From Pantoea cypripedii (GTDB lineage: Bacteria; Pseudomonadota; Gammaproteobacteria; Enterobacterales; Enterobacteriaceae), in NCBI RefSeq assembly GCF_002095535.1, contig NZ_MLJI01000002.1, forward strand, positions 567,786-631,785: a DNA stretch of 64,000 nucleotides, read 5' to 3'. Below are positions 27,390-42,769 of the stretch, piece by piece. The first letter of the stretch is position 1; each line of letters starts with the position of its first letter. The position numbers and the translations under genes were made by a program. The notes beneath the pieces are model-generated. The model was not told where the DNA came from and did not search any database. It was given only the letters and a program-made list of their open reading frames with translations.

Positions 27390-28934
27390 TTATGCCATTA
27401 CCGCATCAACAATCTTATTCAACTCGCCGTTATCAATGAACTGACGCACCGCCGCCAGATCCGGGTACATGGCGCGGTCACGATCGCGGAAAGCCACTTT
27501 GGTTCTGATCAGTTGCAGCGCCGCTGCGGTGGCGGTGGCAGCTTGTAATGGTGCATGAAAATCCAGTGCCTGCGCCGCGCACAGCAATTCGACACTTAAT
27601 AAATCGGCCAGATTATCGGTGGCAGCCTGCGCTTTACGCGCTGATGCTGCACCCTGCGAAATATGATCCTCCTGCCCCGCCACCGTAGACATGGTGTGGA
27701 CTGACGCCGGGGCCGCCAGCAGGCGATTCTCGGCAGACAGCGCCGCCGCCACGCACGGCGAGATGGAGAATGCCGAACCACCGCCCTGATCGGCGGAAAG
27801 AAATCCGGGTAAACCACTCAAATGGCCGTTCACCAGTCGATCGCTGCGGGCCTGCGAGATGGTGGATAAAGTGGCAATCGCCATCGCCAGATGATCAAGC
27901 GCCAGTGCCACCGGGGCACCATGCCCATTACCACCAGGCAGGGCGACTAACGCGTTATCTTCAACAATAAATACCGGATTATCAGTTAACGAATTGATTT
28001 CTATCTCCAGCACGCGTCGGCAGCAGGCGATGGCATCCCGCACCGCACCGTGCACCTGCGGAATACAGCGCAAACTCAGCGCATCCTGCAAGCGATGGTC
28101 ACGATAGTGAGCCAGAATTGCACTGTCCGCTAAAATTTTCACTAAGCGTTCGGCGGTTTCGGTCTGACCAGGATGCGGACGAAAGCGATGCAGCCGAGGA
28201 TCGTAACCACGGGTATTCCCTTTCATGGCTTCCAGACTCATCGCACCCGCCAGATCGGCCAGCTTGATCAGCGCCTCGCAGCGGACCAGTGCTATTGCCC
28301 CCAGGCCACTGATCTCATAAGTGCCACTGATCAGCGCATGCCCTTCACGCGGCCCCGGTTCACGCACCGCAATACCGGCACGACGCAGTGCTTCAGCGCC
28401 GGGTAACAGCTCGCCCTGATACCAGGACTCACCTTCGCCAAATACCGCCAGCCCGATATGCGCCGTCGCAATCAGATACCCCACCGAGCCACCCATGGGA
28501 GCGCGGGGAATTACCCCCTGGTTTAGCATGGCCACCATAGTGGCGAGCAACTCAGGTGATACACCACTGGCACCTTTCAGCATCGCCACAATGATAGTTG
28601 CCATAATCGCCCTGACATTGCAGGCATCGAGCGGTTCACCGACCCCGCTGGCGTGGCTACGCAGCATATTTAGCTGGGTGCGTTTGATCTCTTCAGGGGT
28701 TAATTTGACGGAATACAAATCACCGATACCGGTTGTCAGGCCATAAATTGGCATGCCGCTGCTTATTGCGCTCTGCATAAGCCTCTGCGTTTGGCGCATA
28801 TTTTCCAGAGAGGCAGTATCAAGAGAAACTTTAGCCCCGGCAGCGATCGCCACAATATCGTCAACGGAACATCCCTGATCGCTTAATAGCACACGCTCTT
28901 GCTTCATCAACACCGCATGCATGAAGTCTTTCAT
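27390..28934 (-). CDS. MIO-less histidine ammonia-lyase relative, predicted ergothionase
   Basis: About 514 residues, full length for the HAL/PAL family, with YGLTTGIGDLYSVKL, HASGVGEPLD, LPGGNGHGAP and SIS/TSAGQEDHISQGA-like blocks. The catalytic prosthetic-group site is altered. Real HALs have SVGASGDLAPLAH, in which Ala-Ser-Gly cyclises to MIO; here the segment at about 148-159 is GGSVGYLIATAH with no Ala-Ser-Gly. Ergothionase (ergothioneine trimethylamine-lyase) is a HAL homologue that works without MIO, and the other steps of ergothioneine breakdown are encoded in the same operon. The start at 28934 has GGA upstream; 28952 lacks a ribosome site. It is the last gene of the cluster. Function is inferred, with strong context. 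Confidence 0.82.
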   Translation of the reverse strand: MKDFMHAVLMKQERVLLSDQGCSVDDIVAIAAGAKVSLDTASLENMRQTQRLMQSAISSGMPIYGLTTGIGDLYSVKLTPEEIKRTQLNMLRSHASGVGEPLDACNVRAIMATIIVAMLKGASGVSPELLATMVAMLNQGVIPRAPMGGSVGYLIATAHIGLAVFGEGESWYQGELLPGAEALRRAGIAVREPGPREGHALISGTYEISGLGAIALVRCEALIKLADLAGAMSLEAMKGNTRGYDPRLHRFRPHPGQTETAERLVKILADSAILAHYRDHRLQDALSLRCIPQVHGAVRDAIACCRRVLEIEINSLTDNPVFIVEDNALVALPGGNGHGAPVALALDHLAMAIATLSTISQARSDRLVNGHLSGLPGFLSADQGGGSAFSISPCVAAALSAENRLLAAPASVHTMSTVAGQEDHISQGAASARKAQAATDNLADLLSVELLCAAQALDFHAPLQAATATAAALQLIRTKVAFRDRDRAMYPDLAAVRQFIDNGELNKIVDAVMA

Positions 28935-28992
28935 TTCATATCCAGCCGTCATGATAATCAGGTGGAAGAGTTTCCTCTTCCACCGCGTGGCG

Positions 28993-29865
28993 TTAGTTTA
29001 TTTTATGTGCTTTAAGCCAGTCATTGGCGATCGTATCAAAATCATCATGATCATTAAGGCGCGCATTCATCGCAATCAAATCTTCCGTGGTTAACGCCTG
29101 AGAAATGGCATTTAACGTATCACTCACGGTCTTATCTGCTTTCGCGGCTGACAGCAAGGGAACGACATTCTGGACCGGATTAAGATTTTTGGTATCTTTT
29201 AACGACACCAGATTTTTAGTGTTAATAGCAGGGTCAGTGGAGAACACACAGGCAACATTCACCTGTCCATGCTCCAGGGCAGAAAGCGTCAATGGACCGC
29301 ACACGTCCAGCGTTTTATAGGATTTGAAATTCAAGCCGTAGACCGATTTTAATCCGGGGATCCCTTCCGGGCGGGTTTTCCATTCTGCCGGACCGCCGAG
29401 GATCATATTTTTACTGTGATCCTTAAGATCATCGATATCTTTCAGATTATATTCACTGGCGGTTTTCTTCGTCACCGCGAGGGTCACCACATCCTGAGCC
29501 TGTGAGGGCGTCAGCATGGCAATCCCTTTTGGCAACACCTTCTTCAGGTCACTGGTCACTTGATCGCTGCTTTTCGCTGTAGAACTCTTATCAAAATATT
29601 GCAGGGCCGCACCGGTATATTCCGGAATCAGGTTGATTGAGCCATCAGTGAGCGCAGGCATGTATACCTCCCTGCTGCCGATATTCATTTTCCTTTCAAC
29701 ATGAATATTCTTCGCTGCCAGCGCATCCGCATAAATGGTCGCTAACAGCTGGCTTTCAGGAAAATCCGCCGATCCGACAATAATGGTGGCGGGCGTTGCC
29801 GCATAAGATGCCTGAACAAACGCGAGAGAAAACAGTGACACGGCAAACAAATGACTCAATTTCAT
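28993..29865 (-). CDS. ABC solute-binding protein, OpuBC/OsmX/EgtU type
   Basis: A 290-residue periplasmic binding protein with a signal peptide (MKLSHLFAVSLFSLAFVQASYAA) and the quaternary-amine binding-protein signature (IIVGSADFPESQLLATIYADAL; LIPEYTGAALQYF). This family binds glycine betaine, carnitine and choline; the EgtU branch binds ergothioneine, which also carries a trimethylammonium group. It overlaps the upstream permease gene by four bases. In an operon with ergothionase, ergothioneine is the favoured ligand. No ligand-contact residues can be assigned with certainty from sequence alone. Confidence 0.85.
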   Translation of the reverse strand: MKLSHLFAVSLFSLAFVQASYAATPATIIVGSADFPESQLLATIYADALAAKNIHVERKMNIGSREVYMPALTDGSINLIPEYTGAALQYFDKSSTAKSSDQVTSDLKKVLPKGIAMLTPSQAQDVVTLAVTKKTASEYNLKDIDDLKDHSKNMILGGPAEWKTRPEGIPGLKSVYGLNFKSYKTLDVCGPLTLSALEHGQVNVACVFSTDPAINTKNLVSLKDTKNLNPVQNVVPLLSAAKADKTVSDTLNAISQALTTEDLIAMNARLNDHDDFDTIANDWLKAHKIN

Positions 29866-30590
29866 TTAAGCAGACTCCGGTTGCGTGTAGAAAATAAACG
29901 AATGGGTGATTTCAGCAGGGGCTCCCGCCGTAAAATGCCAGGGGAAACAATGATTCTGATCAGCAGTGAAAAAAAACAATCAACCAGCAGTGCCAGCAAT
30001 GCCACCAGCACTGCGCCCGCAATCATTTGCTGATAATCGTTTTGTGCGCGCCCATCAATAATTAACCGTCCCAGACCGCCTAATGAAACATAAGCAGCGA
30101 TGGTAGCGGTGGAGATGATTTGCAGCGTTGCGCTACGAATACCGGAAATAATCAAGGGTAAGGCACAGGGTAATTCTACGGTTAATAACAGACGTAAGTC
30201 GGAATATCCCATTCCTCTGGCGGCATCAATCACGGTACGATCGATACTGGTAATTCCCGACCAGATGCCAAGCATAATCGAAGGCAACGCCAGGGCAATT
30301 AACACAATCAGGCTGGGGATGATAAAGGCTAAATCCGAGGTGAAAACCGGTCCCAGAACAATCACCAGAATAATGATCAGGCCAAATGAAGGCAAAGCCC
30401 GCAGAGCATTGGCGCAACCCAGTAATAACCGTTCACCTTTGCCGGTATGGCCGCAGTAGCAACCAATCGGAAAGGCCACGATCATGGTGCAAATCAGGGC
30501 AACCGCGCTGTAAATCAGATGCTGATAGATCAGTACCCATAAGCCACCATCGCCCGTCCAGTGTGCACCATTCATAAACCAGTCGATCAT
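29862..30590 (-). CDS. ABC permease, OpuCB/OsmY type (second permease)
   Basis: A 242-residue permease of the quaternary-amine (OpuC/YehY) group with about six helices; the EAA loop is IDAARGMGYSDLRLLLTVELPCALPLIISGIR. The start at 30590 is preceded by AAGGAGAAC; an in-frame upstream start at 30614 would ignore this site. It overlaps the neighbouring permease and binding-protein genes by four bases each, giving tight translational coupling within the importer module. Confidence 0.87.
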   Translation of the reverse strand: MIDWFMNGAHWTGDGGLWVLIYQHLIYSAVALICTMIVAFPIGCYCGHTGKGERLLLGCANALRALPSFGLIIILVIVLGPVFTSDLAFIIPSLIVLIALALPSIMLGIWSGITSIDRTVIDAARGMGYSDLRLLLTVELPCALPLIISGIRSATLQIISTATIAAYVSLGGLGRLIIDGRAQNDYQQMIAGAVLVALLALLVDCFFSLLIRIIVSPGILRREPLLKSPIRLFSTRNRSLLK

Positions 30591-31237
30591 GATGTTCTCC
30601 TTGCCGGTTGCCACATCACCAGACGACGGGTGCCATAGACCACCAGGTTATCGAGGATAAAGGCCAGCAGAATACACAGCACCACCCCGGCGATGATCGG
30701 CGTCAGAAATTGCAGCTGAAAACCCTGGGTAAATAAACTGCCTAACTGTGGCGTGCCCACCAGCGCCGCAATCGAGACAATGCTGACGTTAGAGACGATG
30801 GCGACACGGATACCTGCGGCAATCACCGGTATGGCGATCGGCAGATCGATAGCGACAAATTGCTGCAAGGGTTTGTATCCCAGGGCAAGAGCCGCCTGGC
30901 GGATATCTGGCGCGACGGAATCCAGTCCATCACATACCGTACGTACCAATAAGGCGAAGGCGTAAATCGTCAGCGCCACCACCACATTGATGGTGTCGAG
31001 AATGCGTGTTCCCAGCACGGCGGGCAGCAAAATAAACAGCGCCAGCGAGGGAATGGTATAAAGCAGGCCAAACAAATTGAGGATGACCGCTTTCAGGCGC
31101 GGCACCGCCTGAATTAAGCGTCCAATCGGGATAGCCAGCAATAAACCGATAAACACCGGCACCACCGACAGCCAGAGATGCCAGATAAACAGCTGGAAGA
31201 TCTGATCGCTTTGCCGCAATAACCAATCAAACCTCAT
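30587..31237 (-). CDS. ABC permease, OpuCD/OsmW type (first permease)
   Basis: A 216-residue permease of the same family, with EAA loop IRQAALALGYKPLQQFVAIDLPIAIPVIAAGIR. It overlaps the ATPase gene and the second permease by four bases on each side. Two permeases plus one ATPase and a separate binding protein is the OsmVWXY/OpuC layout of Gram-negative bacteria. Confidence 0.87.
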   Translation of the reverse strand: MRFDWLLRQSDQIFQLFIWHLWLSVVPVFIGLLLAIPIGRLIQAVPRLKAVILNLFGLLYTIPSLALFILLPAVLGTRILDTINVVVALTIYAFALLVRTVCDGLDSVAPDIRQAALALGYKPLQQFVAIDLPIAIPVIAAGIRVAIVSNVSIVSIAALVGTPQLGSLFTQGFQLQFLTPIIAGVVLCILLAFILDNLVVYGTRRLVMWQPARRTS

Positions 31238-32337
31238 AACCCCACCTCCTTATTACTGGCACGCAGGGTTTCCAGCACATTATCAAAATCCATTGCCCCT
31301 AACAGGCGTTGCTGGTCATCAACAATAATGCCCCTTTGGCAGGGAGAGCTGAGCACCGCGTCCGTCAGCTGACGTAACGTGCCGGATAAAGGCGAGAAGG
31401 TGCTGCCAAGATTAATGTCGTGCAGGTCAACGGTTGCTGCCGTGGTCTGTTCCACATCAAACCAGCCCAGCGGTTTCTGATCTTCGGTGACCAGAATCCA
31501 GCGCCCCTGAGCCAGCGCTCTGGCGTTGGCCACACTCTCACCCACGCTGATACTGGGCTCTGGTTGCAGAGGCAATTGCGGGTGCAATGGGCTGAAGGTT
31601 AAACGGCGGTAGCCACGATCACGGCCAATAAAATCAGCCACAAACGGGCTTTTAGGCGCGGTCAGCAGCGTCGCCGGTGACGCCATTTGCGCCAGTCTGC
31701 CGCCCGGCATCAGCACCGCCACCTGATCCCCCAGCTTCATCGCCTCATCAATATCGTGGGTGACCATGATGATGGTTTTGCCAATTTCCCGTTGCAGACG
31801 CAGAAATTCATCCTGCAACTGTTCACGCACCACCGGGTCAACCGCACTGAAAGGTTCATCCATCAGCATAAATTCCGGGTCAGAAGCCAGCGCTCGCGCC
31901 ACACCGACGCGCTGCTGCTGTCCGCCCGAAAGCTGCCAGGGGTAACGGGTTGCCAGTGCTGCCGATAACCCCACCCGTTCCAGCAATTCGTGTGCCGTTT
32001 TACGCGCTGCCTGGCGGGTTGCACCGTTGAGAATGGCAGTCACAGCGATGTTATCAATGATGTTTTTATGCGGAAAAAGCCCTGCATTCTGAATCACATA
32101 GCCAATTCTTCTGCGCAGTTTGACCACATCCATTTCTTCGATGGATTGACCATTAAGTAAAATTTTCCCCGATGAATGCTCAATTAACCGATTAATCATG
32201 CGTAATGTGGTGGTTTTGCCGCATCCTGATGGCCCGACAAGAATGGTGAGCTTCCCGGTCGGTGCCGTTAAGGACAGCCGGTCAACAACCAGCGTGCCAT
32301 CTTCATAATGTTTGGTGACGTTCTCGAACGAAATCAT
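31234..32337 (-). CDS. ABC ATPase, OpuCA/OsmV type with CBS domains
   Basis: A 367-residue ATPase with Walker A GPSGCGKTT, signature LSGGQQQRVGVARAL, Walker B FMLMDEPFSAVD and the H-loop THDIDEAM. The C-terminal 110 residues contain a pair of CBS-like motifs (GRWILVTEDQKPLGWFDV and CQRGIIVDDQQRLLGAMDF), typical of OpuCA/ProV-type osmolyte transporters, where they sense the intracellular state. It is the first gene of the importer module, about 70 bp after the carbamoylase gene. Confidence 0.9.
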   Translation of the reverse strand: MISFENVTKHYEDGTLVVDRLSLTAPTGKLTILVGPSGCGKTTTLRMINRLIEHSSGKILLNGQSIEEMDVVKLRRRIGYVIQNAGLFPHKNIIDNIAVTAILNGATRQAARKTAHELLERVGLSAALATRYPWQLSGGQQQRVGVARALASDPEFMLMDEPFSAVDPVVREQLQDEFLRLQREIGKTIIMVTHDIDEAMKLGDQVAVLMPGGRLAQMASPATLLTAPKSPFVADFIGRDRGYRRLTFSPLHPQLPLQPEPSISVGESVANARALAQGRWILVTEDQKPLGWFDVEQTTAATVDLHDINLGSTFSPLSGTLRQLTDAVLSSPCQRGIIVDDQQRLLGAMDFDNVLETLRASNKEVGL

Positions 32338-32407
32338 GATTAATCCACTACCTTATTTTCTGTGCCGCCCCGCAATGAACGCTGAATGAGGGGCGGCAGT
32401 CTGGTGT

Positions 32408-33649
32408 TCAGGAGCCGCGCAGGTCAAAAGCGATTAAAGAATCCAGTAATACGCTGATGCCACGCGCCAGTTGTTCTTGTGATGTCCACTCTTCCGGACA
32501 GTGGCTTTTGCCGAGCAGGCTGGGAACAAACAGCATTGCTGCGGGGGCGAGGGTGGCGATAAAGGCGCTGTCATGCCCGGCACCGCTGGGCATGACCCGG
32601 GATAGCCATCCGCGCTGCTGGCATGATTGCTCAATCAACGCCATCAGTTGCGGGTGACAGAGGGTCGGATGGGTGTCCGTCAGGACTTCAAAGTCATGCA
32701 ACGAGACGCTGCACTCCTGTGCGGCCTGTACAGCGATCGCTCGCAGTGATGCGGCAAATGCCTCCATCAGCGCGTGATTGTCTGAACGGATGTCAAACAC
32801 CAGCCTGACTTCACCCGGCACCACATTGCTGGCGTTGGGTGAGGCAAAGATTTGCCCGCAGGTGACAGTCAGATGATGATCGGTGGTTTTAAGTACCGCA
32901 CGCGCATGGCTATCGGCACGCTGAATCACGTTGGCCGCCGCCACCAGCGCATCCTGACGCATCGCCATCGGTGTAGTACCGGCATGAGCGGCCTGGCCGC
33001 TTAACGTCAGCGTCAGACGTAAAATCCCGACAATGCCACTGACAATACCGATATCCTCCTCGTGATGTTCGAGGATCTGTCCCTGTTCAATGTGCAGTTC
33101 AAAACTGGCGGTGATGTCGTTTCTGACAGACAGCTGGTCAGGATTGCCGCCCATCCGCCGTACCGCCTCCCGCAGCGTTTCTCCGCTGACCGGGTGTGGT
33201 GTTGCCAGTAATTTTTCATCGAGAAAGCCACTGATTCCCCGGCTGCCGACGCAGGAAACACCCCATTCGCTGGGTTCTTCCGCCAGAAAATCGATGATTT
33301 CAAGGGTGTGCCGGGGCCGGTAACCGGCATGGCTCATTGCTGCCACGCACTCCAGCCCGGCAATCACCCCGGCGATACCGTCAAAGCGCCCGCCCCCTGG
33401 CACGGTATCGCTGTGAGAGCCTATAACGACAATTCCCGCCTCGGGATCCGTCCCCTGGAGAGTGCCAATCAGGTTGCCCGCGCTATCAATGCGTGTCGCC
33501 AGTCCCAGCTCCTGCATCAGCTGGGTTAACCAGCCGCGCCCTTGCAGGAAACGATCGCTGAACGAACGACGCGTGTAGGGTTGCGCCGGGTCGGTGTACT
33601 GGCTCAGGGTTTGCAGCCATTGCCACATCCGATTGTCGTTGATCAGCAT
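32408..33649 (-). CDS. M20-family N-carbamoyl-L-amino-acid amidohydrolase (predicted N-carbamoyl-glutamate hydrolase)
   Basis: A 413-residue M20/M28-fold metallohydrolase of the N-carbamoyl-amino-acid hydrolase/allantoate amidohydrolase family. Metal-ligand segments are GSHSDTVPGGGRFDG (His and bridging Asp), EEPSEWG and HIEQG, with a C-terminal GAGHDSAF supplying a further His. It hydrolyses an N-carbamoyl amino acid to the amino acid, CO2 and ammonia. In ergothioneine catabolism this is the last step, N-carbamoyl-L-glutamate to L-glutamate. It overlaps the upstream hydantoinase gene by seven bases, matching their sequential reactions. Allantoate or ureidoglycine would be the alternative, but no other allantoin genes are present. 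Confidence 0.85.
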   Translation of the reverse strand: MLINDNRMWQWLQTLSQYTDPAQPYTRRSFSDRFLQGRGWLTQLMQELGLATRIDSAGNLIGTLQGTDPEAGIVVIGSHSDTVPGGGRFDGIAGVIAGLECVAAMSHAGYRPRHTLEIIDFLAEEPSEWGVSCVGSRGISGFLDEKLLATPHPVSGETLREAVRRMGGNPDQLSVRNDITASFELHIEQGQILEHHEEDIGIVSGIVGILRLTLTLSGQAAHAGTTPMAMRQDALVAAANVIQRADSHARAVLKTTDHHLTVTCGQIFASPNASNVVPGEVRLVFDIRSDNHALMEAFAASLRAIAVQAAQECSVSLHDFEVLTDTHPTLCHPQLMALIEQSCQQRGWLSRVMPSGAGHDSAFIATLAPAAMLFVPSLLGKSHCPEEWTSQEQLARGISVLLDSLIAFDLRGS

Positions 33650-35040
33650 GTGCCCGGCTCCTGACGGCGGGTCTGTGGCGACACAAACTGGCCATTACCG
33701 GGTTCTGCCGTCACCACATTGTCGGCATAGACCCATTCACCGCGCAGCATGGTGCGTTCAACCCGGTAATAGATTTCGCGTCCATCATAAGGGGACCAGC
33801 CAGAGAAGTTATTGCCGCTGGCCGCCGCCGAATAGATATAGGGATCGCGTTTAATGATGATCAGATCGGCATCTTTGCCGCATTCCAGTGCGCCTTTGCA
33901 ATTATCCAGTTTAAACAGCCGCGCCGCGTTATAACTCAGCACTTTCGCTAGATGATGAAAGGCCACATTGCGTTGTTCAGCACCGGTCAGCGCCAGCGTC
34001 ACCAGCAGTTCGAGGCCTGAGGCACCAGAGGCATTTTCAAACATATTGGCGGATTGTTTGCGATCCAGTGACCAGCTAACGTGATCGGTGGAAAGGACGG
34101 TAATATTTCCCTGTTCCAGATGCTGCCACAAGGCTTCACGTTCCGCTTTCTGGCGCACCGGCGGATTAATTTTTGCCTTTCCGACCAGCCGGGCAACATC
34201 TTCTTCTTCGCTGAGCGTTAAATAATGCAGGCAGGTTTCGACGGTGACATCGTATCCCTGGTCACGATAACTCTTGCATAATTGAATGCCACGGCCATTC
34301 GAGCAGTGAACAATATGCGCACGGCAACCTGTTTCCGCGCCCAGTTCATACACTTCGGCACTGGCGATATTTTCCGTATAACGAGGACGGGAAAGATTAT
34401 GCGCACGGTAGTCGGTAATATTTTCCTGTTTTAATTTTTCAATCAGGAATTTTACCGACTCATCATTTTCATTATGTACGCCGGCAATTAAACCCAGCGA
34501 GGCGATTTCACTAAAACATTCATGCAGCATATGCGGCGCAATACGCGGGAAACGCTGAGCATCGGTGCCGAAACTGGAGAATTTAAAACCGATGGCACCG
34601 GCCTGCGCCATCGCCGCCAGATGTTGTTTGCCTTCCTCTGGATGAACCGTGCCATACAAAGCAAAATCAACCCTGACCTGAGCTTCTGCTTCTGCTCTTT
34701 TCAGGTTAAACAGTTCTTCGTTGCAGATTAAACGCCCGGCATCATAAGGCATATCCACGATGGTGGTCACACCGCCCGCCGCCGCCGCCTTCGTTGACCA
34801 GATAAAATCTTCATTGTCTTTCTGACTGCGGCTGTGAACCTGAGCATCAATCGCACCGGGGAAAATATAGCTACCACGATAATCAATCACCTCATTCGCT
34901 TCAGGCACGCCCTCTTCTGCTGAACCTACCGCGACAACGAGTCCCTGGTTAATCGCGACAAAACCGTCATCAATTATTCTGTCGGCCAGAACAACAATAC
35001 CTGTGATGACCTTTTCACATGTGAATTTCTGCGAAGACAT
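33643..35040 (-). CDS. Hydantoinase/dihydropyrimidinase-family cyclic amidohydrolase
   Basis: A 465-residue amidohydrolase (allantoinase/hydantoinase/dihydroorotase family). Metal and catalytic segments are GAIDAQVHSRS (the first His of HxH is Gln, as in some dihydroorotases), GFKFSSFG (carbamylated Lys), AGVHNEND, HIVHCSNGRG and LSTDHVSW. It opens a hydantoin ring; here hydantoin-5-propionate to N-carbamoyl-glutamate is predicted. The start at 35040 has AAGG seven bases upstream; ATG 35046 would put that site too close. It is immediately followed by its natural partner, the carbamoylase. Confidence 0.86.
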   Translation of the reverse strand: MSSQKFTCEKVITGIVVLADRIIDDGFVAINQGLVVAVGSAEEGVPEANEVIDYRGSYIFPGAIDAQVHSRSQKDNEDFIWSTKAAAAGGVTTIVDMPYDAGRLICNEELFNLKRAEAEAQVRVDFALYGTVHPEEGKQHLAAMAQAGAIGFKFSSFGTDAQRFPRIAPHMLHECFSEIASLGLIAGVHNENDESVKFLIEKLKQENITDYRAHNLSRPRYTENIASAEVYELGAETGCRAHIVHCSNGRGIQLCKSYRDQGYDVTVETCLHYLTLSEEEDVARLVGKAKINPPVRQKAEREALWQHLEQGNITVLSTDHVSWSLDRKQSANMFENASGASGLELLVTLALTGAEQRNVAFHHLAKVLSYNAARLFKLDNCKGALECGKDADLIIIKRDPYIYSAAASGNNFSGWSPYDGREIYYRVERTMLRGEWVYADNVVTAEPGNGQFVSPQTRRQEPGTC

Positions 35041-35153
35041 ATTCATACCTTTTTAAATTTAAATTAATACCACTGCAAATCGGAATGAAATCACCCTGGC
35101 TGTAAAAACCGCATGACTTCTCACGCTTATTTAATGCTGAATAACCCACCGGC

Positions 35154-37463
35154 TTATTCGGTCTGGTAATAAATATCCGGCGGGGTAAATGCCGTAACCG
35201 GCGGTGCCGTGCCAGCATAGCTCTCAATTTCCACTAGCAGAGAATTACAGCTGGGTCCCTGCGCAAGCGGAGAGCTGCCTTTATCCTGCGTCAGGACATT
35301 GGGATTGCCATGCTTATCCAGGCAGCCATCATCAAGATAGATCGGGTCAAACCAGGCACCGGTGGGCAGTTGCGCCACTCCGGGTATCAAGGACTCCGTT
35401 AGTCTCACCCCGGCAAGACATTGACCCCGCGCGTTGTAAATGCGCACGATGTCGCCCTCGCCAATTCCCCGCGCATCGGCGTCGGCTGCATTCATCAGCA
35501 GACGATTACGTCCACCGATTTTCCCGTCGCGGCTGTGTTTGCCGTGATCATACTGGCTGTGCAATTTGTCCGCGGGCTGTGGCGATAACAGATGAATCGG
35601 ATAGTGCCGGGCCAGATCCGATCCCAGCCATTCATCCGGTGCCAGCCACACCGCATGCCCTGGGCACTGCGCATAACCAAAATCGGCAACCTGTTGTGAA
35701 AACAATTCAATGCGGCCCGAAGGCGTACGCAGAGGATGAGCCAGCGGATCGGCACGAAATTCTGCCAGCACGTTGAAATGGCTTTCCGCTAACGGGAAGG
35801 TGGTGACTTCCTGTTGCCAGAACTGTGTAAACGGCGGCAATTGCGGATTGCGGCTGCGTGATTGCTCATAAAGTTCGGCAACCCAGTCTTCTGCTGTTTT
35901 CCCCTCGGTGAACGACGCTTCAAAGCCCATCAGTCGCGCCAGTCCCTGGAAAATATGGTAATCATCACGCGCTTGCCGGAAAGGCGGGATCGCCTGCTTC
36001 ATCGCCACTACGGTGTTATCGCGGTTCACCAGCGCCAGATCGTTGCGCTCAAATGAAGTGGTGACCGGCAACACAATATCCGCATGGCGTGCGGTGGCCG
36101 TCCAGAATGGTTCCTGCACGATAATAGTTTCCGGTTGCTGCCAGGCTTCAACCAGACGATTAAGATCCTGATGATGGTGAAAGGGGTTACCGCCCGCCCA
36201 GTACACCAGACGGATATCCGGATAACGCAGCGTCTTGCCGTTAAAGGCATATTCGGCATGGGGTGACAGCAGCATATCGGCCAGCCGCGCCACCGGGATG
36301 CTGTCCTCAACCGGATTCTTCCCCTGTGGCAGACTCGGCCAGCGATAGCCCAGTTCATCCTGACCCACACCGTTCAGACAGGCATAGCCGAAACCGAATC
36401 CCCCGCCCGGTAAACCGATATCCCCGAGCATAGCGGCCAGCGTGACAGCGGCCCAGTAAGGCTGCTCACCGTATTCCGCGCGCTGAATGGCCCAGTTAAC
36501 CATGATCATGGTGCGTTTCGTGGCGATTAACTCTGCCAGCTCGATAATCTTTGCCTGCGGCACGTCACAGATTTGCGCAGCCCACGCGGCATCCCTGGTG
36601 ATGCCATCGTCCTGGCCCTGTAAATAGGCCAGAACCTGATCAAAACCCACGGTATAACGCTGAATAAACGCCATATCGTGCCGTTGCTGCCGGATCAATT
36701 CACTGCACAGCGCCAGCATCAACGCGGTATCGGTATTCGGGCGGATCGGCAACCAGTCACACGCCATCTGCTCCGGCATATCCTGGCGGCAGGGCGAAAT
36801 ATTAATAAACTGCACGCCCTGCTCAGCAGCCTGTTGCAGCGCCTGCTGATGATTGTGCCTGCCGACGCCACCGCCCTGAATCTGGCTATTGCGGCCAGGT
36901 AAGCCGCCAAAAGTCAGCACCAGGCCGCTATGATTGGCGATCTGCTCCCAGGTGGTGTAGTGGCTCACCAACCCGCGCTGATTGCCAATGATATACGGCA
37001 GCACCACTTCACCCGCTGCGGATGAGTAGGTATTCTCTGAGCCGGTATAGCCCCCGGCCAAATTAAGAAAACGATGGATCTGGCTTTGGGCATGATGGAA
37101 ACGTCCGGCGCTGGCCCAGCCGTAGGAACCTGCATAAATCGCCCGGTTGCCATACTGCCGCCGCACACGATCCAGCTCTCCCGCCACCAGCCCCAGTGCT
37201 TCGTCCCAGGACACTTCGATAAACTCATCCCGGCCGCGCGGCTGGCGATCGCGGGAGGTTTTATCCAGCCAGCCACGGCGGATCAAAGGGCGGGCAATGC
37301 GCACCGGACCATCAACCGCTTCCGGCAGCGATTCACCAATCGCCGAGGGTTCCGGATCTTCCGCCCAGGGCTGCACGCCGACAATGGTCGCGTTCTCAAT
37401 CTGCAACTGGTAAATCCCCCAGTGCGTTGAGGTCAGAACGGAGCGCGTGGATGACTGTGACAT
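35154..37463 (-). CDS. BisC/TorA-like molybdopterin oxidoreductase
   Basis: A 769-residue molybdopterin enzyme of the DMSO-reductase family, S/N-oxide reductase branch: LTSTHWGIYQLQI at the N-terminus, the Mo-ligand region SYGWASAGRFHHAQSQ (Ser118 as ligand), and GGFGFGYACLNGVGQ. It has no N-terminal Cys motif for a 4Fe-4S cluster and no Tat signal, so it is cytoplasmic like biotin sulfoxide reductase BisC. Such enzymes reduce sulfoxides and N-oxides. In this operon the substrate might be an oxidised (S-oxide) form of ergothioneine or a pathway intermediate, or trimethylamine oxide. Six bases separate it from the hydratase gene. It is not part of the published five-step pathway as I recall it. 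Confidence 0.85.
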   Translation of the reverse strand: MSQSSTRSVLTSTHWGIYQLQIENATIVGVQPWAEDPEPSAIGESLPEAVDGPVRIARPLIRRGWLDKTSRDRQPRGRDEFIEVSWDEALGLVAGELDRVRRQYGNRAIYAGSYGWASAGRFHHAQSQIHRFLNLAGGYTGSENTYSSAAGEVVLPYIIGNQRGLVSHYTTWEQIANHSGLVLTFGGLPGRNSQIQGGGVGRHNHQQALQQAAEQGVQFINISPCRQDMPEQMACDWLPIRPNTDTALMLALCSELIRQQRHDMAFIQRYTVGFDQVLAYLQGQDDGITRDAAWAAQICDVPQAKIIELAELIATKRTMIMVNWAIQRAEYGEQPYWAAVTLAAMLGDIGLPGGGFGFGYACLNGVGQDELGYRWPSLPQGKNPVEDSIPVARLADMLLSPHAEYAFNGKTLRYPDIRLVYWAGGNPFHHHQDLNRLVEAWQQPETIIVQEPFWTATARHADIVLPVTTSFERNDLALVNRDNTVVAMKQAIPPFRQARDDYHIFQGLARLMGFEASFTEGKTAEDWVAELYEQSRSRNPQLPPFTQFWQQEVTTFPLAESHFNVLAEFRADPLAHPLRTPSGRIELFSQQVADFGYAQCPGHAVWLAPDEWLGSDLARHYPIHLLSPQPADKLHSQYDHGKHSRDGKIGGRNRLLMNAADADARGIGEGDIVRIYNARGQCLAGVRLTESLIPGVAQLPTGAWFDPIYLDDGCLDKHGNPNVLTQDKGSSPLAQGPSCNSLLVEIESYAGTAPPVTAFTPPDIYYQTE

Positions 37464-37468
37464 CGATA

Positions 37469-39100
37469 TCAGCCCCTGAGCTGTGCCGGAATACCCAGCC
37501 CGGATTCGATAGCGAGATCAACCGCTGTCTCATAACCGGCGCTGGCATGGCGCAGGATCCCGATACTGGTATCGTTATCCATCACGCGGGCTAAACGCCC
37601 GGCAGACTCTTCATCGCCCGTTGCCACGGTAGTGACCCCGGCAGATACCCCCCAGTTGCCTAAAGAGTGCACGGCCACCAGATCGGCACCTGAACCACAG
37701 TTGAGCAGAGCATTGAGAATCGGCCAGTCAGCAATCGCGTCGGAACCGTCCGCCATATTTTCCGTTTCACGATGCGGTAAAGTGGCAGAACCTGAATCGA
37801 GATGATCACGGGTAAAAGCGATCGGCCCAATTTCACCCGCCGCCACCAGCTGGTTCACCGCCAGCGCCAGCTTTTTGCGTTCACCGTACCCCATCCAGCC
37901 AATACGCGCGGGCAGGCCAGTGAACTGCACATGTTCTTTGGCGGTTTTTATCCAGTCAACGATGCGCTGATTTTCCGGGAACAGCTCAAGCACCAACTCA
38001 TCAATCTTATAGATGTCCTGGGGATTGCCGCTTACCGCGATCCAGCGGAATGGACCGATGCCCTGGCAAAACAGGGGGCGAATAAACAGTTCAATAAAAG
38101 AATGGATGTCAAAGGCGGCGCTGACGCCCGCTTCGCTGGCGTATTTGCGCAGGTTGTTACCATATTCAAAAACAATGGCACCACGCGACTGCAACGTCAG
38201 CATGGCGGAAACATGCTGGTTGAGTGTGGCATACGACAATGCCTTTAATTTTTCCGCATCAGTCTGACGCAGGCGGGCAACCTCTTCGGGCGTCACCCCC
38301 AGCGGGAAATAGCCGTTGACCGGGTCGGCGATGGTCTGGTCAGTCACAATGTCCGGTGTCAGATTGCGCTCAACCAGGATGCTCAGGACTTCGGCGATAT
38401 TCCCGACTAAACCAACGGAAATCCCTTTACCGGCAGACTGCGCTTCGGCGCACAGGGCCAGCGCTTCATCCAGCTCATAGGTCAGCACCTGGCAGTAACC
38501 ACTGTCGAGGCGGCGCTGAATTTTTCTCGCGTCTACTTCCACCACCAACGTTGCGGCCCCGGCCAGTTGCCCGGCAAGGGGTTGCGCGCCACTCATGCCA
38601 CCGCATCCGCCCGTGACAATCAGCCGACCCGCCAGGCTGCCAGAGAAATGCTGGCGCGCTGCGGACATAAAGGTTTCATAGGTGCCCTGCAAAATGCCCT
38701 GGCTGCCAATGTACTGCCAGGCTGCCGCCGTCATGCCCGGCATGATCGTCAACCCTGCCCGTTCCAGCGCGCGATACTCATCATCGCCAGCCCAGCCACC
38801 GACAACATTGCCATTTGCCATCAGGACCACTGGCGTGGTGTTTTGTGAAGAGAAAATGCCGACTGGCTTGCCGGATTGCATCACCAGCGTCTGATCGGTT
38901 TCCAGCCGTTTTAATGCCGCAACCGTGTGATCGAAACTGGTCCAGTCGCGTGCGGCTTTTGCCCAGGCCATATAAATCACCAGCTGGTCCGGGTTCTCGG
39001 CATTTTCCAGATTATTTTCCAGCATTCTGAGAATGGCTTCCTGACGCCATCCTTTACAGCGCAGTTCGCTACCCCGCTGGGCAGTGATGTGACGAGACAT
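37469..39100 (-). CDS. Urocanate hydratase homologue, predicted thiourocanate hydratase
   Basis: A 543-residue urocanase-family protein, full length, with the NAD-binding and core blocks (YIGSQGILQGTYETF, GGMSGAQPLAGQLAGA, IRPLFCQGIGPFRW, TRDHLDSGSATLPHRETENM). It departs from canonical HutU in the active-site loop near residues 475-490: true urocanases have a HHGGGVGMGYSQH-type sequence, whereas here it is VHSLGNWGVSAG. Thiourocanate hydratases of ergothioneine breakdown are diverged urocanases, and the MIO-less lyase is in the same operon, so hydration of thiourocanate is predicted. No hutH/hutI/hutG neighbours are present. Confidence 0.85.
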   Translation of the reverse strand: MSRHITAQRGSELRCKGWRQEAILRMLENNLENAENPDQLVIYMAWAKAARDWTSFDHTVAALKRLETDQTLVMQSGKPVGIFSSQNTTPVVLMANGNVVGGWAGDDEYRALERAGLTIMPGMTAAAWQYIGSQGILQGTYETFMSAARQHFSGSLAGRLIVTGGCGGMSGAQPLAGQLAGAATLVVEVDARKIQRRLDSGYCQVLTYELDEALALCAEAQSAGKGISVGLVGNIAEVLSILVERNLTPDIVTDQTIADPVNGYFPLGVTPEEVARLRQTDAEKLKALSYATLNQHVSAMLTLQSRGAIVFEYGNNLRKYASEAGVSAAFDIHSFIELFIRPLFCQGIGPFRWIAVSGNPQDIYKIDELVLELFPENQRIVDWIKTAKEHVQFTGLPARIGWMGYGERKKLALAVNQLVAAGEIGPIAFTRDHLDSGSATLPHRETENMADGSDAIADWPILNALLNCGSGADLVAVHSLGNWGVSAGVTTVATGDEESAGRLARVMDNDTSIGILRHASAGYETAVDLAIESGLGIPAQLRG

Positions 39101-39180
39101 AATTATGATCCTGCATGTTCGGAAACATTAACCCCGGCAGCAACGTCGTGCAGCCCACCGGTTAGCGAAAGAAATAATAA

Positions 39181-39783
39181 TCAGGCATTCACCAGATTTT
39201 CATAACCGGGAATATCTTTGAAATTGCCGATCCAGCGTTGAATAGCTGGCCATTCCGCCAAGGTATATCCGCCCTCTTCCGCCATCGAGATATAAGGATA
39301 AAGGCTGAAATCGGCCACACTTAAACTTTCCCCGGCGATCCAGCTACTTTTTTCCAGCGCCTGATTAACATGGGTAAGGGCGACTTTTCCCAACTCCATA
39401 TAATGCGCAATAATATCGGCAAACTTTTCACGCTGGTTGGTCATGGTATAAAAACGTGGGTAGGCCAGGAAGCGCAATAAATCCGCCTGTTCAAAGAACA
39501 ACCACGCATTAATTTTGCATCGCATCACCGGATCGGCAGGCAGCAATGACGAACCTTCGGCAAAATAAAGCAGGATAGCATTTGACTCATTAAGATGACG
39601 CCCATCGGCAAGTTCAACCACCGGAATACGGGCAAATGGGTTTCTTTTTTTGAAGGCTTCTTCTTTATGTTTACCTTCCGCCAGATTTAAGGTTTCCCTG
39701 GTGTAGGGGATTTGCAAAAAATTCAACATCAATCTAATTTTCCATGCATTGCCGGAAAGTTTGCTGTCATACAACTTAATCAT
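39181..39783 (-). CDS. Glutathione S-transferase family protein
   Basis: A 200-residue GST with an N-terminal thioredoxin-like domain (MIKLYDSKLSGNAWKIRLML, likely active-site Ser10; cis-Pro in FARIPVVEL; glutathione gamma-Glu site NESNAILLYF) and an all-helical C-terminal domain (SWIAGESLSVADFSLYPYI). It sits between the DUF917 and thiourocanate hydratase genes in the ergothioneine cluster. A role with a thiol or thione intermediate (for example capturing sulfide or protecting an electrophilic acrylate) is possible but speculative. Confidence 0.88.
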   Translation of the reverse strand: MIKLYDSKLSGNAWKIRLMLNFLQIPYTRETLNLAEGKHKEEAFKKRNPFARIPVVELADGRHLNESNAILLYFAEGSSLLPADPVMRCKINAWLFFEQADLLRFLAYPRFYTMTNQREKFADIIAHYMELGKVALTHVNQALEKSSWIAGESLSVADFSLYPYISMAEEGGYTLAEWPAIQRWIGNFKDIPGYENLVNA

Positions 39784-39794
39784 AATACGTCCTG

Positions 39795-40874
39795 TTATTT
39801 CGTGTTTATATATGAGTACAGTTCCAGCCCAAGCCCTTGCTCGATCTCTGCAAATACCACCGGGTCCAGAGCACCTTTGCCCAGCGGGAAGGCGGAATGA
39901 TGCGCAATAATAATGCTGACTTCCTGGCCCGCTTTCATGGTTGAAATGGCAATCGGGTCTCCGGTTACTGCATCGACAGAACCTATCATGTCTGGGAAAG
40001 TCGCCAGACGAGCATCGTCTTTTTCGGCCGTCATATATTCATTGTAAACCCCAAGACGCAGGGTCTCAGTGCCATCGGTTAGGGTGACAAAACCAATGTC
40101 GAAACCATCCTGATAGACCACATCGTTTTTTATCACTTTGCCGGTCAGAATGACTTCTCCCCCCATAAATGCGGCGGCAGCACTGGCGCGGGCCAATCCC
40201 TGGGGGGCGGATAACATCGCCTTGCCGAGTTCAATCTGGAACGATATGGCCCCGGCGGCCCCATTTTCACGAATAAAATCAGCCTGGTAAGGGCCTCTCG
40301 CTGAGGCCACCAGCCCACCACTGATGGTGGCGCAATGGCGCATCACCTGGGAGGTTTTGATCAAATTCCCTTCAGCGACGACGGCAATTTTTGAACCGGA
40401 TGAGGCAAAACCTGCCTGCGCAACCTGAACAATTGAGATATCCGGCCTTGAAGCCAACCCCATTCCACCCATTTTCACGGTTGGATGCCCACGGCCATTG
40501 GCAGCCGCGTCAATATAGGGCAGGTCCAGGGCCGCAGCCACCAGCCAGCCATTAAATCCGGGGACATGACCACACATCACACCGGCAGGTTTGCGTCCGA
40601 GTTTTTCAATCAGATTTTCGGCGGCGGTAATATGATCTTTTAACACCAGTTCTGGTTGGGCAAATCCTGGTGCACCTACTGAGGTGGAAATTAATACATA
40701 ACCTTCAGGATCGATTTCATCCAATTCCGCCAGCTTAACAATATTCAGACCCAGTGCCACTTCAGCCGCGAGATCGTGTTTCTCCAGAGAATTATTAACG
40801 CCACTTCCCCCCGACGAGAGCAATAACCCACCATACATTGCAGGCTCAACATCTTTTAAACTTAACTCTCTCAT
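39795..40874 (-). CDS. DUF917 (thiohydantoin desulfurase family) protein
   Basis: A 359-residue DUF917-family protein. Typical blocks are GGLLLSSGGSGVNN near the N-terminus, DAAANGRGHPTVKMGG in the middle, and GFDIGFVTLTDG, YNEYMTAEKD and FPDMIGSVDAVTGDPI in the C-terminal domain. Members of this family have been assigned as (S-methyl-)thiohydantoin desulfurases, the enzyme type linking the early and late halves of bacterial ergothioneine catabolism, which exactly fills the gap between the hydratase and hydantoinase here. It is the first gene of the eleven-gene minus-strand cluster. No metal site can be named with confidence. Confidence 0.82.
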   Translation of the reverse strand: MRELSLKDVEPAMYGGLLLSSGGSGVNNSLEKHDLAAEVALGLNIVKLAELDEIDPEGYVLISTSVGAPGFAQPELVLKDHITAAENLIEKLGRKPAGVMCGHVPGFNGWLVAAALDLPYIDAAANGRGHPTVKMGGMGLASRPDISIVQVAQAGFASSGSKIAVVAEGNLIKTSQVMRHCATISGGLVASARGPYQADFIRENGAAGAISFQIELGKAMLSAPQGLARASAAAAFMGGEVILTGKVIKNDVVYQDGFDIGFVTLTDGTETLRLGVYNEYMTAEKDDARLATFPDMIGSVDAVTGDPIAISTMKAGQEVSIIIAHHSAFPLGKGALDPVVFAEIEQGLGLELYSYINTK

Positions 40875-41017
40875 GTATCAACCACCGTAGTCGTGTTTTA
40901 ATTTAATATATCTTTATAAATATATTTCCTTGTTCGTTGCAAGTCAGATGCCAGTTAACAAAACCGTTTTTGATTGCCATTTATTAATCGTAATCCGTCC
41001 TTTTGTGCACAAAAATA

Positions 41018-41029
41018 GTGCGCGCGCAC
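41018..41029. promoter_or_regulatory. GTGCGCGCGCAC palindrome, candidate operator
   Basis: A perfect 12-bp palindrome about 144 bp upstream of the DUF917 start, preceded by an AT-rich run. It may be bound by the divergently encoded LacI regulator. Confidence 0.45.
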
Positions 41030-41208
41030 CACGCATCGCACCATTCTGGGCATACTTTTAAATATTGGCTAAAGAGAATAAAAGAGGCAGGGATTGAAGA
41101 TTCCATTGAGATGCATTACATCTAATGTTCAAATGCTTCCCTTATTGCCTCTCTAAAGGAGATAATAATGAAAGTTACCGGGGCGGGGATATTCTAAATG
41201 ATTTAAGA

Positions 41209-41218
41209 CAAGCGCTTG
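41209..41218. promoter_or_regulatory. CAAGCGCTTG palindrome, LacI-type operator
   Basis: A perfect 10-bp palindrome with central CpG (CAAGC|GCTTG), typical of LacI/GalR operators, 53 bp before the start of the LacI gene. It suggests autoregulation and control of the divergent cluster. Confidence 0.5.
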
Positions 41219-41270
41219 ACCGGGTAAGCTAAATCACTTTTCGTTCAGACAGCGATTTCAGGGAACATGT

Positions 41271-42281
41271 ATGTCACTTTCGGAACTGGCCAAAGACCTA
41301 AAGTTATCAACGTCAACGGTATCGCGGGCGCTGAATGGCTATAGCGATGTGGCTTATGATACCCGGCAACGCGTTATGCAGCGGGCCATCGAATTAGGCT
41401 ATATCCCTAATCCGGTTGCCAGAAGGCTTAAAGGCGGCAAAACCAATATGATCGGTGTGGTCCTGCCGCCGCCACTGGTTAATGGCATGCTGGTTGAGCC
41501 ATTTTACTCCTCCATGCTGGGGGCGCTGGTTTTTGAATTACAGGCTTCTGGCCTGAAATTGCTCATCACCAATCAGCACAGCAACGAAAGTGATGACGAT
41601 GTCCGTGGCTATCAGGACATGGTGCAGCAAAAACTGGTCGACGCCATTCTGATATTGCGGACGCGGGTGAATGACCTGCGCGTGAAGTTTGCCCAGCAAC
41701 AAAATGTCTCCTTTATTACCTTTGGCAGGACGCAATCCTCAACCCCGCATGCATGGGTGGATGTCGATCATTTCGATGCGTTCTATCAGGCTACCGCGCG
41801 ACAAATTGCCCGCGGCCATAAGCATATTGCGTTTATCAATACGTCGGCTGAATTCAACTATGCCCGCTTACGCCACGAGGGTTACAAGCAGTGTTTACTG
41901 GATCATCAGCTTCTCTATCGTAACGAGTGGCAAATGGTCGGGGGGCTGACCGAGATGGACGGTTATGTGCTGGCCAGTCGCCTGCTTAAAGTGCAGCCCA
42001 TCCCCACCGCTATTGTCTGCGCAACGGATGATATCGCTATCGGCGCCATGGCAGCGTGCCGTCTTTTGGGGCTGCAACCCGGCAAAGACATTAGCCTGAT
42101 TGGTTACGGTAATACGCCTGGCGCAACCTACTCCAGCCCACCACTCACCACCATGGATCCCTTTCCTAAAGAGAATGGTAAGCAACTGGGTATCTTTTTT
42201 AGCCGACGTATCTTTCAGCCTGGAGAAGCAGATTTTCAACATTTGCAGCAAGCAAGGCTGATTGTGCGCGAATCAGACTAG
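41271..42281 (+). CDS. LacI-family regulator of the ergothioneine cluster
   Basis: A 336-residue LacI-type regulator. The DNA-binding domain starts directly at the N-terminus (LSELAKDLKLSTSTVSRALNGYSDV; hinge NPVARRLKGGKTNM), followed by a full effector domain (GVVLPPPLVNGM... ISLIGYGNTPGATYSSPPLTT). GGGA eight bases upstream supports the ATG at 41271. It is transcribed away from the eleven-gene cluster, so it is the natural repressor of that cluster. The inducer may be ergothioneine or thiourocanate (inference). Confidence 0.9.
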   Translation: MSLSELAKDLKLSTSTVSRALNGYSDVAYDTRQRVMQRAIELGYIPNPVARRLKGGKTNMIGVVLPPPLVNGMLVEPFYSSMLGALVFELQASGLKLLITNQHSNESDDDVRGYQDMVQQKLVDAILILRTRVNDLRVKFAQQQNVSFITFGRTQSSTPHAWVDVDHFDAFYQATARQIARGHKHIAFINTSAEFNYARLRHEGYKQCLLDHQLLYRNEWQMVGGLTEMDGYVLASRLLKVQPIPTAIVCATDDIAIGAMAACRLLGLQPGKDISLIGYGNTPGATYSSPPLTTMDPFPKENGKQLGIFFSRRIFQPGEADFQHLQQARLIVRESD

Positions 42282-42283
42282 AC

Positions 42284-42769
42284 TCAGCCCGCCATCGCGG
42301 GCTGTTTTTCCCGCTCGCCGCACAGTAACAGCAAATCATCCTGGCGATACCAGTCCCCGCATGGCAGCAGGTGGAAGGTCAGTTGGCACAATGCATCGCT
42401 ATGGCCGGCAAAGTCTTTACGCACCACGCTGGGCTTAATGCGTAGCAACCGAATAAAGGTTCTGGAAAAAGAATTCTGGCTTTTGAAGCCATACTCAACG
42501 CTAATCTCAGCCAGGCTTTTGCTGGTGAAAGCAAGATCATAAGCGGCATTCACCAGGCGGCGTGCCCTGATGTACTCCCCCAGCTTCCAGCCACTGATCT
42601 CGGTAAAGCGGCGTTGAAAATGCCAGTGGGAATAGCCGCTTTTCTTCGTCACCCTTCTCAGTTGCAGATCTGCACCGAGGTTTTTCTCAATCCAGTCAAC
42701 CATATCCACCACAACATTGCGGAACTGCAGGTCAGTGTCGGGATGGCTATTGAGCGTTGCCGGGTTCAT
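42284..42769 (-). CDS. Single-domain AraC/XylS regulator (MarA/Rob-like) with short C-terminal extension
   Basis: A 161-residue AraC-domain protein with two helix-turn-helices (RRVTKKSGYSHWHFQRRFTEISG and LAEISVEYGFKSQNSFSRTF). About 45 residues follow the DNA-binding domain, too few for a full Rob-type C-terminal domain, and contain LCQLTFHLLPCGDWYRQDDLLLLCG. It is the third MarA-like protein in the window and converges on the LacI gene with two bases between them. Regulon unknown. Confidence 0.87.
   Translation of the reverse strand: MNPATLNSHPDTDLQFRNVVVDMVDWIEKNLGADLQLRRVTKKSGYSHWHFQRRFTEISGWKLGEYIRARRLVNAAYDLAFTSKSLAEISVEYGFKSQNSFSRTFIRLLRIKPSVVRKDFAGHSDALCQLTFHLLPCGDWYRQDDLLLLCGEREKQPAMAG

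What the first reader, a model, noticed from the sequence alone, without database searches (positions are those of the whole stretch)
27390..42281. Complete ergothioneine-catabolism island with its own importer and LacI regulator in an enterobacterium
Eleven same-strand genes cover every step I know for bacterial ergothioneine breakdown: lyase (ergothionase), thiourocanate hydratase, thiohydantoin desulfurase family (DUF917), hydantoinase and N-carbamoyl-glutamate amidohydrolase. They are linked to a quaternary-amine ABC importer of the EgtUV/OpuC type. Gene overlaps tie the modules together. The published in vitro pathway was described from soil firmicutes and proteobacteria; a single regulated island with uptake and two extra redox genes is an attractive, testable nutritional system. 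The pathway is established knowledge; assigning these genes to it is inference from family and context.
Basis: partly seen in the sequence, partly recalled or inferred. Interest (0 to 1): 0.9.

Follow-up and report, generated by a model that had tools for sequence, protein, structure and literature searches.

The report
Gene island for S-methylergothioneine breakdown
A Pantoea bacterium carries a gene island that most likely imports and dismantles the sulfur-methylated form of the mushroom antioxidant ergothioneine, rather than ergothioneine itself, using a portable trimethylamine-releasing module that other bacteria seem to plug into different pathways.

Summary
The island is real and sits where reported: eleven genes on the minus strand (27390-40874) and a divergent LacI gene (41271-42281), in a Pantoea. 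The reading needs one correction. Curated models place the hydratase and the desulfurase in the S-methyl branch, and both fall below the cut-offs of the plain ergothioneine enzymes. ErtD and ErtE pass theirs. The lyase has lost the MIO triad of histidine ammonia-lyase and lies outside the Treponema-type ergothionase clade; the Burkholderia ergothionase could not be compared. The importer lacks the EgtU specificity residues and most of the known aromatic cage. Support for S-methyl chemistry: a glutathione transferase occurs in 19 of 23 S-methyl loci and 0 of 11 plain loci; a cytosolic-type S-oxide reductase adjoins the hydratase; both close Pantoea relatives carry an O-acetylhomoserine sulfhydrylase gene that could trap methanethiol, of which the window keeps only the ends. 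The importer-lyase cassette also fronts a hut cluster on Klebsiella plasmids and CoA-type clusters in rhizobia and Sodalis. Nothing was assayed. I rate it a new variant of a known pathway.

The parts
27390..28952 (-). HAL-superfamily lyase without MIO triad (GSVGY-L); proposed S-methylergothioneine trimethylamine-lyase
   Evidence: PF00221 513 bits; hutH 476 bits, below cut-off 539; MIO triad missing, N195 to S, Y280 to L; 120 of 120 listed homologues have GSVGYL
28993..29865 (-). OpuAC-family substrate-binding protein
   Evidence: PF04069 166 bits; lacks EgtU determinants and three of four cage Tyr
29862..30614 (-). ABC permease 1 (OpuC/ProW type)
   Evidence: PF00528
30587..31237 (-). ABC permease 2 (OpuC/ProW type)
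   Evidence: PF00528
31234..32337 (-). ABC ATPase, ProV/OpuCA-like
   Evidence: PF00005; TIGR01186 281 bits, below its cut-off 327
32408..33649 (-). ErtE, N-carbamoyl-L-glutamate amidohydrolase
   Evidence: NF058540 533 > 520 bits
33643..35046 (-). ErtD, hydantoin-5-propionate amidohydrolase
   Evidence: NF058538 712 > 600 bits
35154..37463 (-). Cytosolic-type molybdopterin S/N-oxide reductase (BisC/DMSO reductase family); proposed to reduce an imported S-oxide
   Evidence: TIGR00509 960 bits, below cut-off 1018; SYGW and YSSAA motifs; simple RR-x-F pattern not found at its start
37469..39100 (-). S-methyl thiourocanate hydratase
   Evidence: NF058531 978 > 880 bits; plain model NF058530 716 < 930; hutU 695 > 375; best solved relatives 8q9v/8q9u
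39181..39783 (-). Glutathione S-transferase of the S-methyl branch
   Evidence: GST Pfam domains; 19 of 23 S-methyl loci, 0 of 11 plain loci; Ser10 and Glu66-Ser67 invariant in 21 of 21 aligned
39795..40874 (-). S-methyl thiohydantoin desulfurase
   Evidence: NF058532 566 > 450 bits; plain NF058529 269 < 440; PF06032/PF20906
40950..40972 (.). Conserved block with CpG-centred near-palindrome CAAAACCGTTTTTG (40959-40972), candidate LacI operator
   Evidence: Identical in window, L015 and L016 within a gap that differs around it
41168..41232 (+). Remnant of an O-acetylhomoserine sulfhydrylase (MetY-type) gene: start codon and last 14 codons remain
   Evidence: Intact in L015 and L016 (L015 copy classified); 41188-41270 is 100% identical to the 3' part in L015, about 1.2 kb missing
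41271..42281 (+). LacI-family regulator, divergent
   Evidence: PF00356/PF13377; conserved in both Pantoea relatives

Best explanation
A LacI-controlled catabolic island for S-methylergothioneine. The OpuC-family importer brings the betaine in (inferred). The cytosolic molybdopterin enzyme reduces the S-oxide form of the methylthio group (inferred, about 0.5). The MIO-less lyase eliminates trimethylamine to give S-methyl thiourocanate (inferred from residues and context). S-methyl thiourocanate hydratase and S-methyl thiohydantoin desulfurase then give hydantoin-5-propionate and methanethiol, and ErtD and ErtE give glutamate, ammonia and CO2 (these four steps rest on curated family models). 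The GST serves the S-methyl intermediates in a glutathione-dependent step not needed in the plain pathway; cis/trans isomerisation or protection from an electrophilic methylthio-imidazolone are candidates (guess). In relatives a MetY-type enzyme could trap methanethiol.
For: Curated cut-offs separate S-methyl from plain enzymes for both hydratase and desulfurase; the same split is seen in 12 of 14 other hydratases scanned. GST follows the S-methyl type: 19 of 23 vs 0 of 11 loci, and 19 of 22 vs 0 of 5 within Pseudomonadota. Both close relatives carry an O-acetylhomoserine sulfhydrylase gene beside LacI. The lyase lacks MIO, and HAL N195 and Y280 are replaced by Ser and Leu, as read in Treponema ergothionase. 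Near relatives of the lyase (P0122, P0123, P0124, P0137) are on contigs whose lengths equal those of S-methyl hydratase hits (P0002, P0009, P0017, P0012); the 45,073-base Rhizobium rhizogenes contig also carries a MoCo hit (P0276). In Agrobacterium the same enzymes come with a different betaine-type importer.
Against: The binding protein lacks the EgtU residues and keeps one of four cage tyrosines of AfProX, with Val, Phe and Gln at the others. Of the 23 S-methyl loci only 8 show a HAL-family gene, 3 of these with the MIO triad, and only 4 show an OpuC/ProX-type binding protein. The lyase shares a clade with lyases of hut and CoA clusters, so its specificity is not read from sequence; P0138, on a contig as long as that of P0137, falls outside the 7-row S-methyl group. 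The lineage of the Burkholderia ergothionase was not tested. The hydratase also passes the hutU cut-off. Molybdopterin genes of S-methyl loci are not one clade (9 changes). MetY is in no S-methyl locus other than the two Pantoea ones and is lost in the window. Related loci are not independent.
Confidence: 0.65

Rival explanations
1. The island degrades plain ergothioneine, releasing H2S rather than methanethiol; the S-methyl labels are over-fitted subfamily names.
For: Same reaction order; ErtD and ErtE occur in both branches. The window lyase clade holds Burkholderia proteins (59-61% identical), and a Burkholderia enzyme is a characterised ergothionase whose sequence I could not compare.
Against: The plain models miss their cut-offs by wide margins (716/930 and 269/440 bits), while plain clusters elsewhere pass them: 4 of 5 such hydratases (L036 just misses, 890/930) and 5 of 6 genomes. 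Plain clusters show no GST (0 of 11).
Confidence: 0.15
2. The true substrate is another S-methylated thiohistidine (primary amine or partly N-methylated), or another compound whose lyase product enters the same pathway.
For: Degenerate amine cage in the binding protein. In Lichenihabitans the S-methyl cluster holds a lyase with an intact MIO triad, with C1/glycine-cleavage-type genes nearby, which suggests an ammonia-releasing route there.
Against: The window lyase has no MIO triad, so ammonia elimination from a primary amine is unlikely; the ABC genes are of the betaine family.
Confidence: 0.15
3. The lyase and importer are a hercynine or aromatic-betaine module placed next to an unrelated S-methyl pathway by chance.
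For: The same cassette lies in hut and CoA contexts elsewhere.
Confidence: 0.05

Closest known systems
Five-step bacterial ergothioneine catabolism (Beliaeva et al. 2021; I saw only its entry in the reference list of PMC9732360; the enzyme order is recalled)
   Same: Same order of chemistry and the same last two enzymes (ErtD, ErtE over cut-off).
   Different: Hydratase and desulfurase are of the S-methyl type; lyase outside the Treponema clade; GST, molybdopterin reductase and (in kin) MetY added.
S-methyl thiourocanate hydratase / S-methyl thiohydantoin desulfurase (NCBIfam NF058531, NF058532; solved relatives of the hydratase 8q9u, 8q9v)
   Same: Curated cut-offs met; 8q9v is the best solved relative at 679 bits.
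   Different: Here linked to an importer-lyase cassette; the papers behind these families were not held, so I cannot say which neighbours they described.
Ergothionase of Treponema denticola (6s7j, 6s7q)
   Same: HAL superfamily, MIO triad lost, Ser and Leu at the N195 and Y280 places.
   Different: 189 bits only; different deletion at the triad and a different clade.
Ergothionase of Burkholderia sp. HME13
   Same: Acts on ergothioneine (PMC11089744, passages); Burkholderia proteins do fall in the window lyase clade.
EgtU/EgtUV ergothioneine importer
   Same: OpuAC-family binding protein and related ABC parts.
   Different: Phe where EgtU has invariant Gly244, Tyr where EgtU has Phe293; separate genes.

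Membership tests
S-methyl thiourocanate hydratase (NF058531) | Curated model score over cut-off and above the plain model | tested here: met
   978 vs 880 bits; plain NF058530 716 vs 930
S-methyl thiohydantoin desulfurase (NF058532) | Curated model score over cut-off and above the plain model | tested here: met
   566 vs 450 bits; plain NF058529 269 vs 440
ErtD / ErtE | Curated equivalog cut-offs | tested here: met
   NF058538 712 vs 600; NF058540 533 vs 520
S-methyl branch enzymes | Activity on S-methyl substrates | not testable with these tools
   No assay possible
Ergothionase (Treponema type) | MIO triad absent | tested here: met
   GSVGY-L in place of GSVGASGDL
Ergothionase (Treponema type) | Member of the Treponema-type clade | tested here: not met
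   Separate starred clades in a quick tree; 6s7j 189 bits vs HAL 333 bits. 6s7j itself was not in the tree; L042 (450 bits to it) stood for it
Ergothionase (Burkholderia type) | Close kinship to the Burkholderia sp. HME13 enzyme | not tested
   Sequence not available; clade holds other Burkholderia proteins
Histidine ammonia-lyase | MIO-forming Ala-Ser-Gly | tested here: not met
   hutH cut-off also missed
EgtU binding domain | Gly244 and Phe293 equivalents | tested here: not met
   Phe35 and Tyr83 in the window protein (determinants from PMC9732360)
AfProX-type quaternary amine cage | Four cage tyrosines | tested here: not met
   Tyr63 kept; 111, 190, 214 are Val, Phe, Gln; these three position numbers are recalled
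BisC/DMSO reductase family | Curated cut-off TIGR00509 | tested here: not met
   960 vs 1018 bits; clear homologue with SYGW and Ser-ligand motifs

The most novel reading that the evidence does not exclude
The importer plus MIO-less lyase is a portable trimethylamine-lyase cassette, apart from Treponema-type ergothionase, that bacteria plug into whichever pathway takes the resulting acrylate: urocanate (hercynine use, hut clusters on Klebsiella plasmids), aryl-acrylyl-CoA (aromatic betaines, rhizobia and Sodalis) and S-methyl thiourocanate (this island). Here it feeds a complete route that also reduces an imported S-oxide and, in kin, captures methanethiol.
Probability: 0.42. Interest if true: 0.7.

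Novelty: new variant of a known kind. Interest (0 to 1): 0.52.

Why it matters
It would supply a candidate entry step for S-methylergothioneine, which is measured in urine of mice (title of PMC8471778, listing), and point to a large clade of lyases, annotated as histidine ammonia-lyases, that may release trimethylamine. A 2026 study ran BLAST with Burkholderia ergothionase, found only HAL/PAL/TAL-type hits and took ergothionase to be uncommon in the gut, noting that divergent homologues may be missed (PMC13405746, section 3.1 and passages). Checking the MIO triad, as here, would re-sort such hits. On Klebsiella plasmids the same cassette stands where hutH would be, which is directly testable with hercynine.

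Tried and rejected
Rejected: plain histidine use (no MIO triad). Rejected: EgtU membership (residues). TMAO respiration by the molybdopterin enzyme is unlikely: a simple RR-x-F-[LIV] pattern was not found in the first 60 residues of the window protein or of 63 other rows (the locus rows are stop-to-stop ORFs), and the SYGW tyrosine of DMSO reductases is kept; that TorA lacks this Tyr is recalled. MetY in other loci: only L015 and L016 matched among all loci held. A second MetY-type gene in the own genome: none at E <= 1e-60 (the tool warns that an empty answer shows little). The S-methyl hydratase in 346 genomes of one family: 0 at E <= 1e-250 (same warning). Literature: no held paper had 'thiourocanate hydratase'; two searches listed none on the S-methyl enzymes; none with hercynine+urocanate+trimethylamine+lyase; ergothioneine+methanethiol gave 6 papers, and searches were also seen as listings only. 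PMC11089744 was seen in passages. The tools for structure prediction were not used, since I had no way to inspect coordinates.

L024, L030, L040, L043 and L046 were left out of the 23 S-methyl loci (no S-Me-THD in view, or, L043, under both cut-offs); with them the GST count is 20 of 28. L021, L023 and L033, three of the four S-methyl loci without GST, are on short contigs. Hydratase type was set by NCBIfam for 14 loci (L036 and L043 pass neither model) and for 5 plain ones, otherwise by best match to references.
Full report
Observation. The reported genes are all present at the reported places and have the reported families. Eleven are on the minus strand with the overlaps described; the LacI gene is divergent. 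The host is a Pantoea: the two nearest loci are Pantoea (L015, hydratase 99% identical; L016, 91%). L015 matches the window over 27473-47865 at 95-96% DNA identity, apart from one gap. L016 matches from 27555 to 42280 and then stops at the end of LacI, so the island has an edge on that side; on the lyase side L015 and L016 end with the fetched stretch.

Which branch. NCBIfam separates two branches. The window hydratase scores 978 bits against S-methyl thiourocanate hydratase (cut-off 880) and 716 against the plain enzyme (cut-off 930). It also passes the broad hutU model (695 vs 375), as did all 14 other hydratases scanned, so that model does not discriminate. The desulfurase scores 566 against the S-methyl model (cut-off 450) and 269 against the plain one (cut-off 440). 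Of those 14 hydratases from other loci, 8 pass the S-methyl but not the plain model, 4 the plain but not the S-methyl model, and 2 neither. ErtD and ErtE pass their own cut-offs, ErtE narrowly.

Rarity. The S-methyl hydratase is over cut-off in 1 of 40 close genomes (the window's own; 24 of the 40 are of the genus, own included), in 1 of 398 genomes of the phylum (again the own one), and in 0 of 346 and 7 of 248 genomes of two other families. The lyase at E <= 1e-110 is in 1 of 295 genomes of the order, the own one.

The lyase. It aligns to histidine ammonia-lyases at up to 333 bits and to Treponema ergothionase at 189. Where HAL has GSVGASGDL it has GSVGYL; HAL N195 and Y280 are Ser and Leu, while Y53, H83, R283 and E414 are kept (HAL residue numbers recalled). 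All 120 listed homologues share GSVGYL. Treponema ergothionase and the lyases of plain clusters also lack MIO, by a different deletion. A quick tree (42 rows, SH-aLRT only) gives three MIO-less groups: the window's clade of 26 rows (100), an ergothionase-type clade of 10 rows (99), and a pair of the Agrobacterium and hut-adjacent lyases (99); several rows are long, so deep joins are not trusted. S-methyl loci have lyases in all three groups, and three S-methyl loci have a MIO-type lyase in view. That a missing MIO suits a trimethylammonium leaving group is inference; PMC13405746 states that ergothionase lacks MIO. The characterised Burkholderia ergothionase could not be compared; the window clade does contain Burkholderia proteins (59-61% identical to the window lyase), so 'second lineage' holds only against the Treponema type.

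The importer. It is of the OpuAC family. EgtU has invariant Gly244 and Phe293 (PMC9732360, passages; G244F binds about 100-fold more weakly); the window has Phe and Tyr there. Of the AfProX cage only Tyr63 is kept. So the family is right and the EgtU label is not. The ligand cannot be read from these residues; this is the weakest link of the betaine reading.

Cassette. Related ABC genes plus a GSVGY lyase occur with a CoA-transferase, hydroxyacyl-CoA dehydrogenase and enoyl-CoA hydratase in Sodalis, Rhizobium, Neorhizobium and Agrobacterium, and inside a hut cluster without hutH on a Klebsiella pneumoniae plasmid, whose record has one HAL-family place. That whole 13.3 kb cluster is covered to at least 80% in 163 of 275 matching plasmid records (72,556 searched). 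The common need in these contexts is an acrylate-type acid, which a trimethylamine-lyase would supply. This is inference from context.

GST and reductase. GST is present in 19 of 23 loci with both S-methyl enzymes and in 0 of 11 plain loci; within Pseudomonadota 19 of 22 against 0 of 5 (Fisher 7e-4; all 5e-6). Related loci are not independent, so these values are only a guide. Ser10 and Glu66-Ser67 are invariant in the 21 GSTs aligned. The molybdopterin gene is in 6 of the 23 loci, and in the window. It keeps the SYGW and YSSAA motifs of DMSO reductase and begins without an evident twin-arginine leader. Its copies from S-methyl contexts are clustered but not one clade (9 changes against a shuffled mean of 14.5), and labels there rest partly on contig lengths. 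Two further strong BisC-family matches lie elsewhere in the own genome, so this copy is extra. Reduction of an S-methyl S-oxide is my preferred role, at about 0.5.

Methanethiol. Both Pantoea relatives hold a PLP-enzyme gene between LacI and the desulfurase gene; the L015 copy is an O-acetylhomoserine aminocarboxypropyltransferase by TIGR01326 (638 vs cut-off 495). The window keeps its start codon region and its last 14 codons; about 1.2 kb is missing. Enzymes of this family can use methanethiol (recalled), the product expected only from the S-methyl branch. No other S-methyl locus held shows this gene. Whether O-acetylhomoserine is made in Pantoea was not tested; O-acetylserine is another acceptor.

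Regulation. The divergent gap holds a 23-base block with a CpG-centred near-palindrome, identical in three Pantoea copies that differ around it. It is a candidate operator for the LacI protein.

Verdict. An ergothioneine-type catabolic island, correctly seen, of the S-methyl branch. New variant of a known kind; the cassette idea is the part most worth testing.

Noticed in passing
L074 (Klebsiella pneumoniae plasmid pINF357.1, CP110561.1:68227-93696): A hut cluster (hutG, hutI, hutU, hutD, hutC, formimidoylglutamate deiminase) has no canonical hutH; the record's one HAL-family place is MIO-less (GSVGY, N195 to G) and sits with an OpuC-type importer. Hercynine to urocanate plus trimethylamine is a testable guess; 163 of 275 matching plasmid records cover at least 80% of the cluster.
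   Followed up: partly
L049:13822-18500 (own genome, C1): Near the normal hutU/hutH is a second lyase of the GSVGY type with an amino-acid-type ABC importer; it scores 543 bits, over the hutH cut-off of 539, despite lacking the MIO triad, so model-based annotation would call it HutH.
   Followed up: partly
L048:9947-18648 (own genome, C2): A MIO-less lyase of the ergothionase-type group with an OpuAC binding protein related to the window's (329 bits), a CoA-transferase, SDR, MaoC, LysR and UbiD: a possible aromatic betaine route.
   Followed up: partly
L045:1-19715 (Lichenihabitans psoromatis plasmid): S-methyl cluster whose lyase keeps the MIO triad, with C1/glycine-cleavage-type genes upstream; may demethylate first and then release ammonia.
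   Followed up: no
window 53890-60725: GC-rich block (about 60%) with AMP-binding, FAD oxidoreductase, AIR-synthase-like, radical SAM and nitrilase genes; resembles the Nit1C cluster linked to cyanide assimilation (name recalled).
   Followed up: no
window 42284-42769, 42891-43787: Small AraC-type protein resembling Rob/SoxS (below their cut-offs) and a LysR gene just outside the LacI end; no match beside the island in L016.
   Followed up: no
window 25159-27348: TonB-dependent siderophore receptor (TIGR01783 449 vs cut-off 224) whose end lies 41 bases from the lyase stop, convergent with the island.
   Followed up: no
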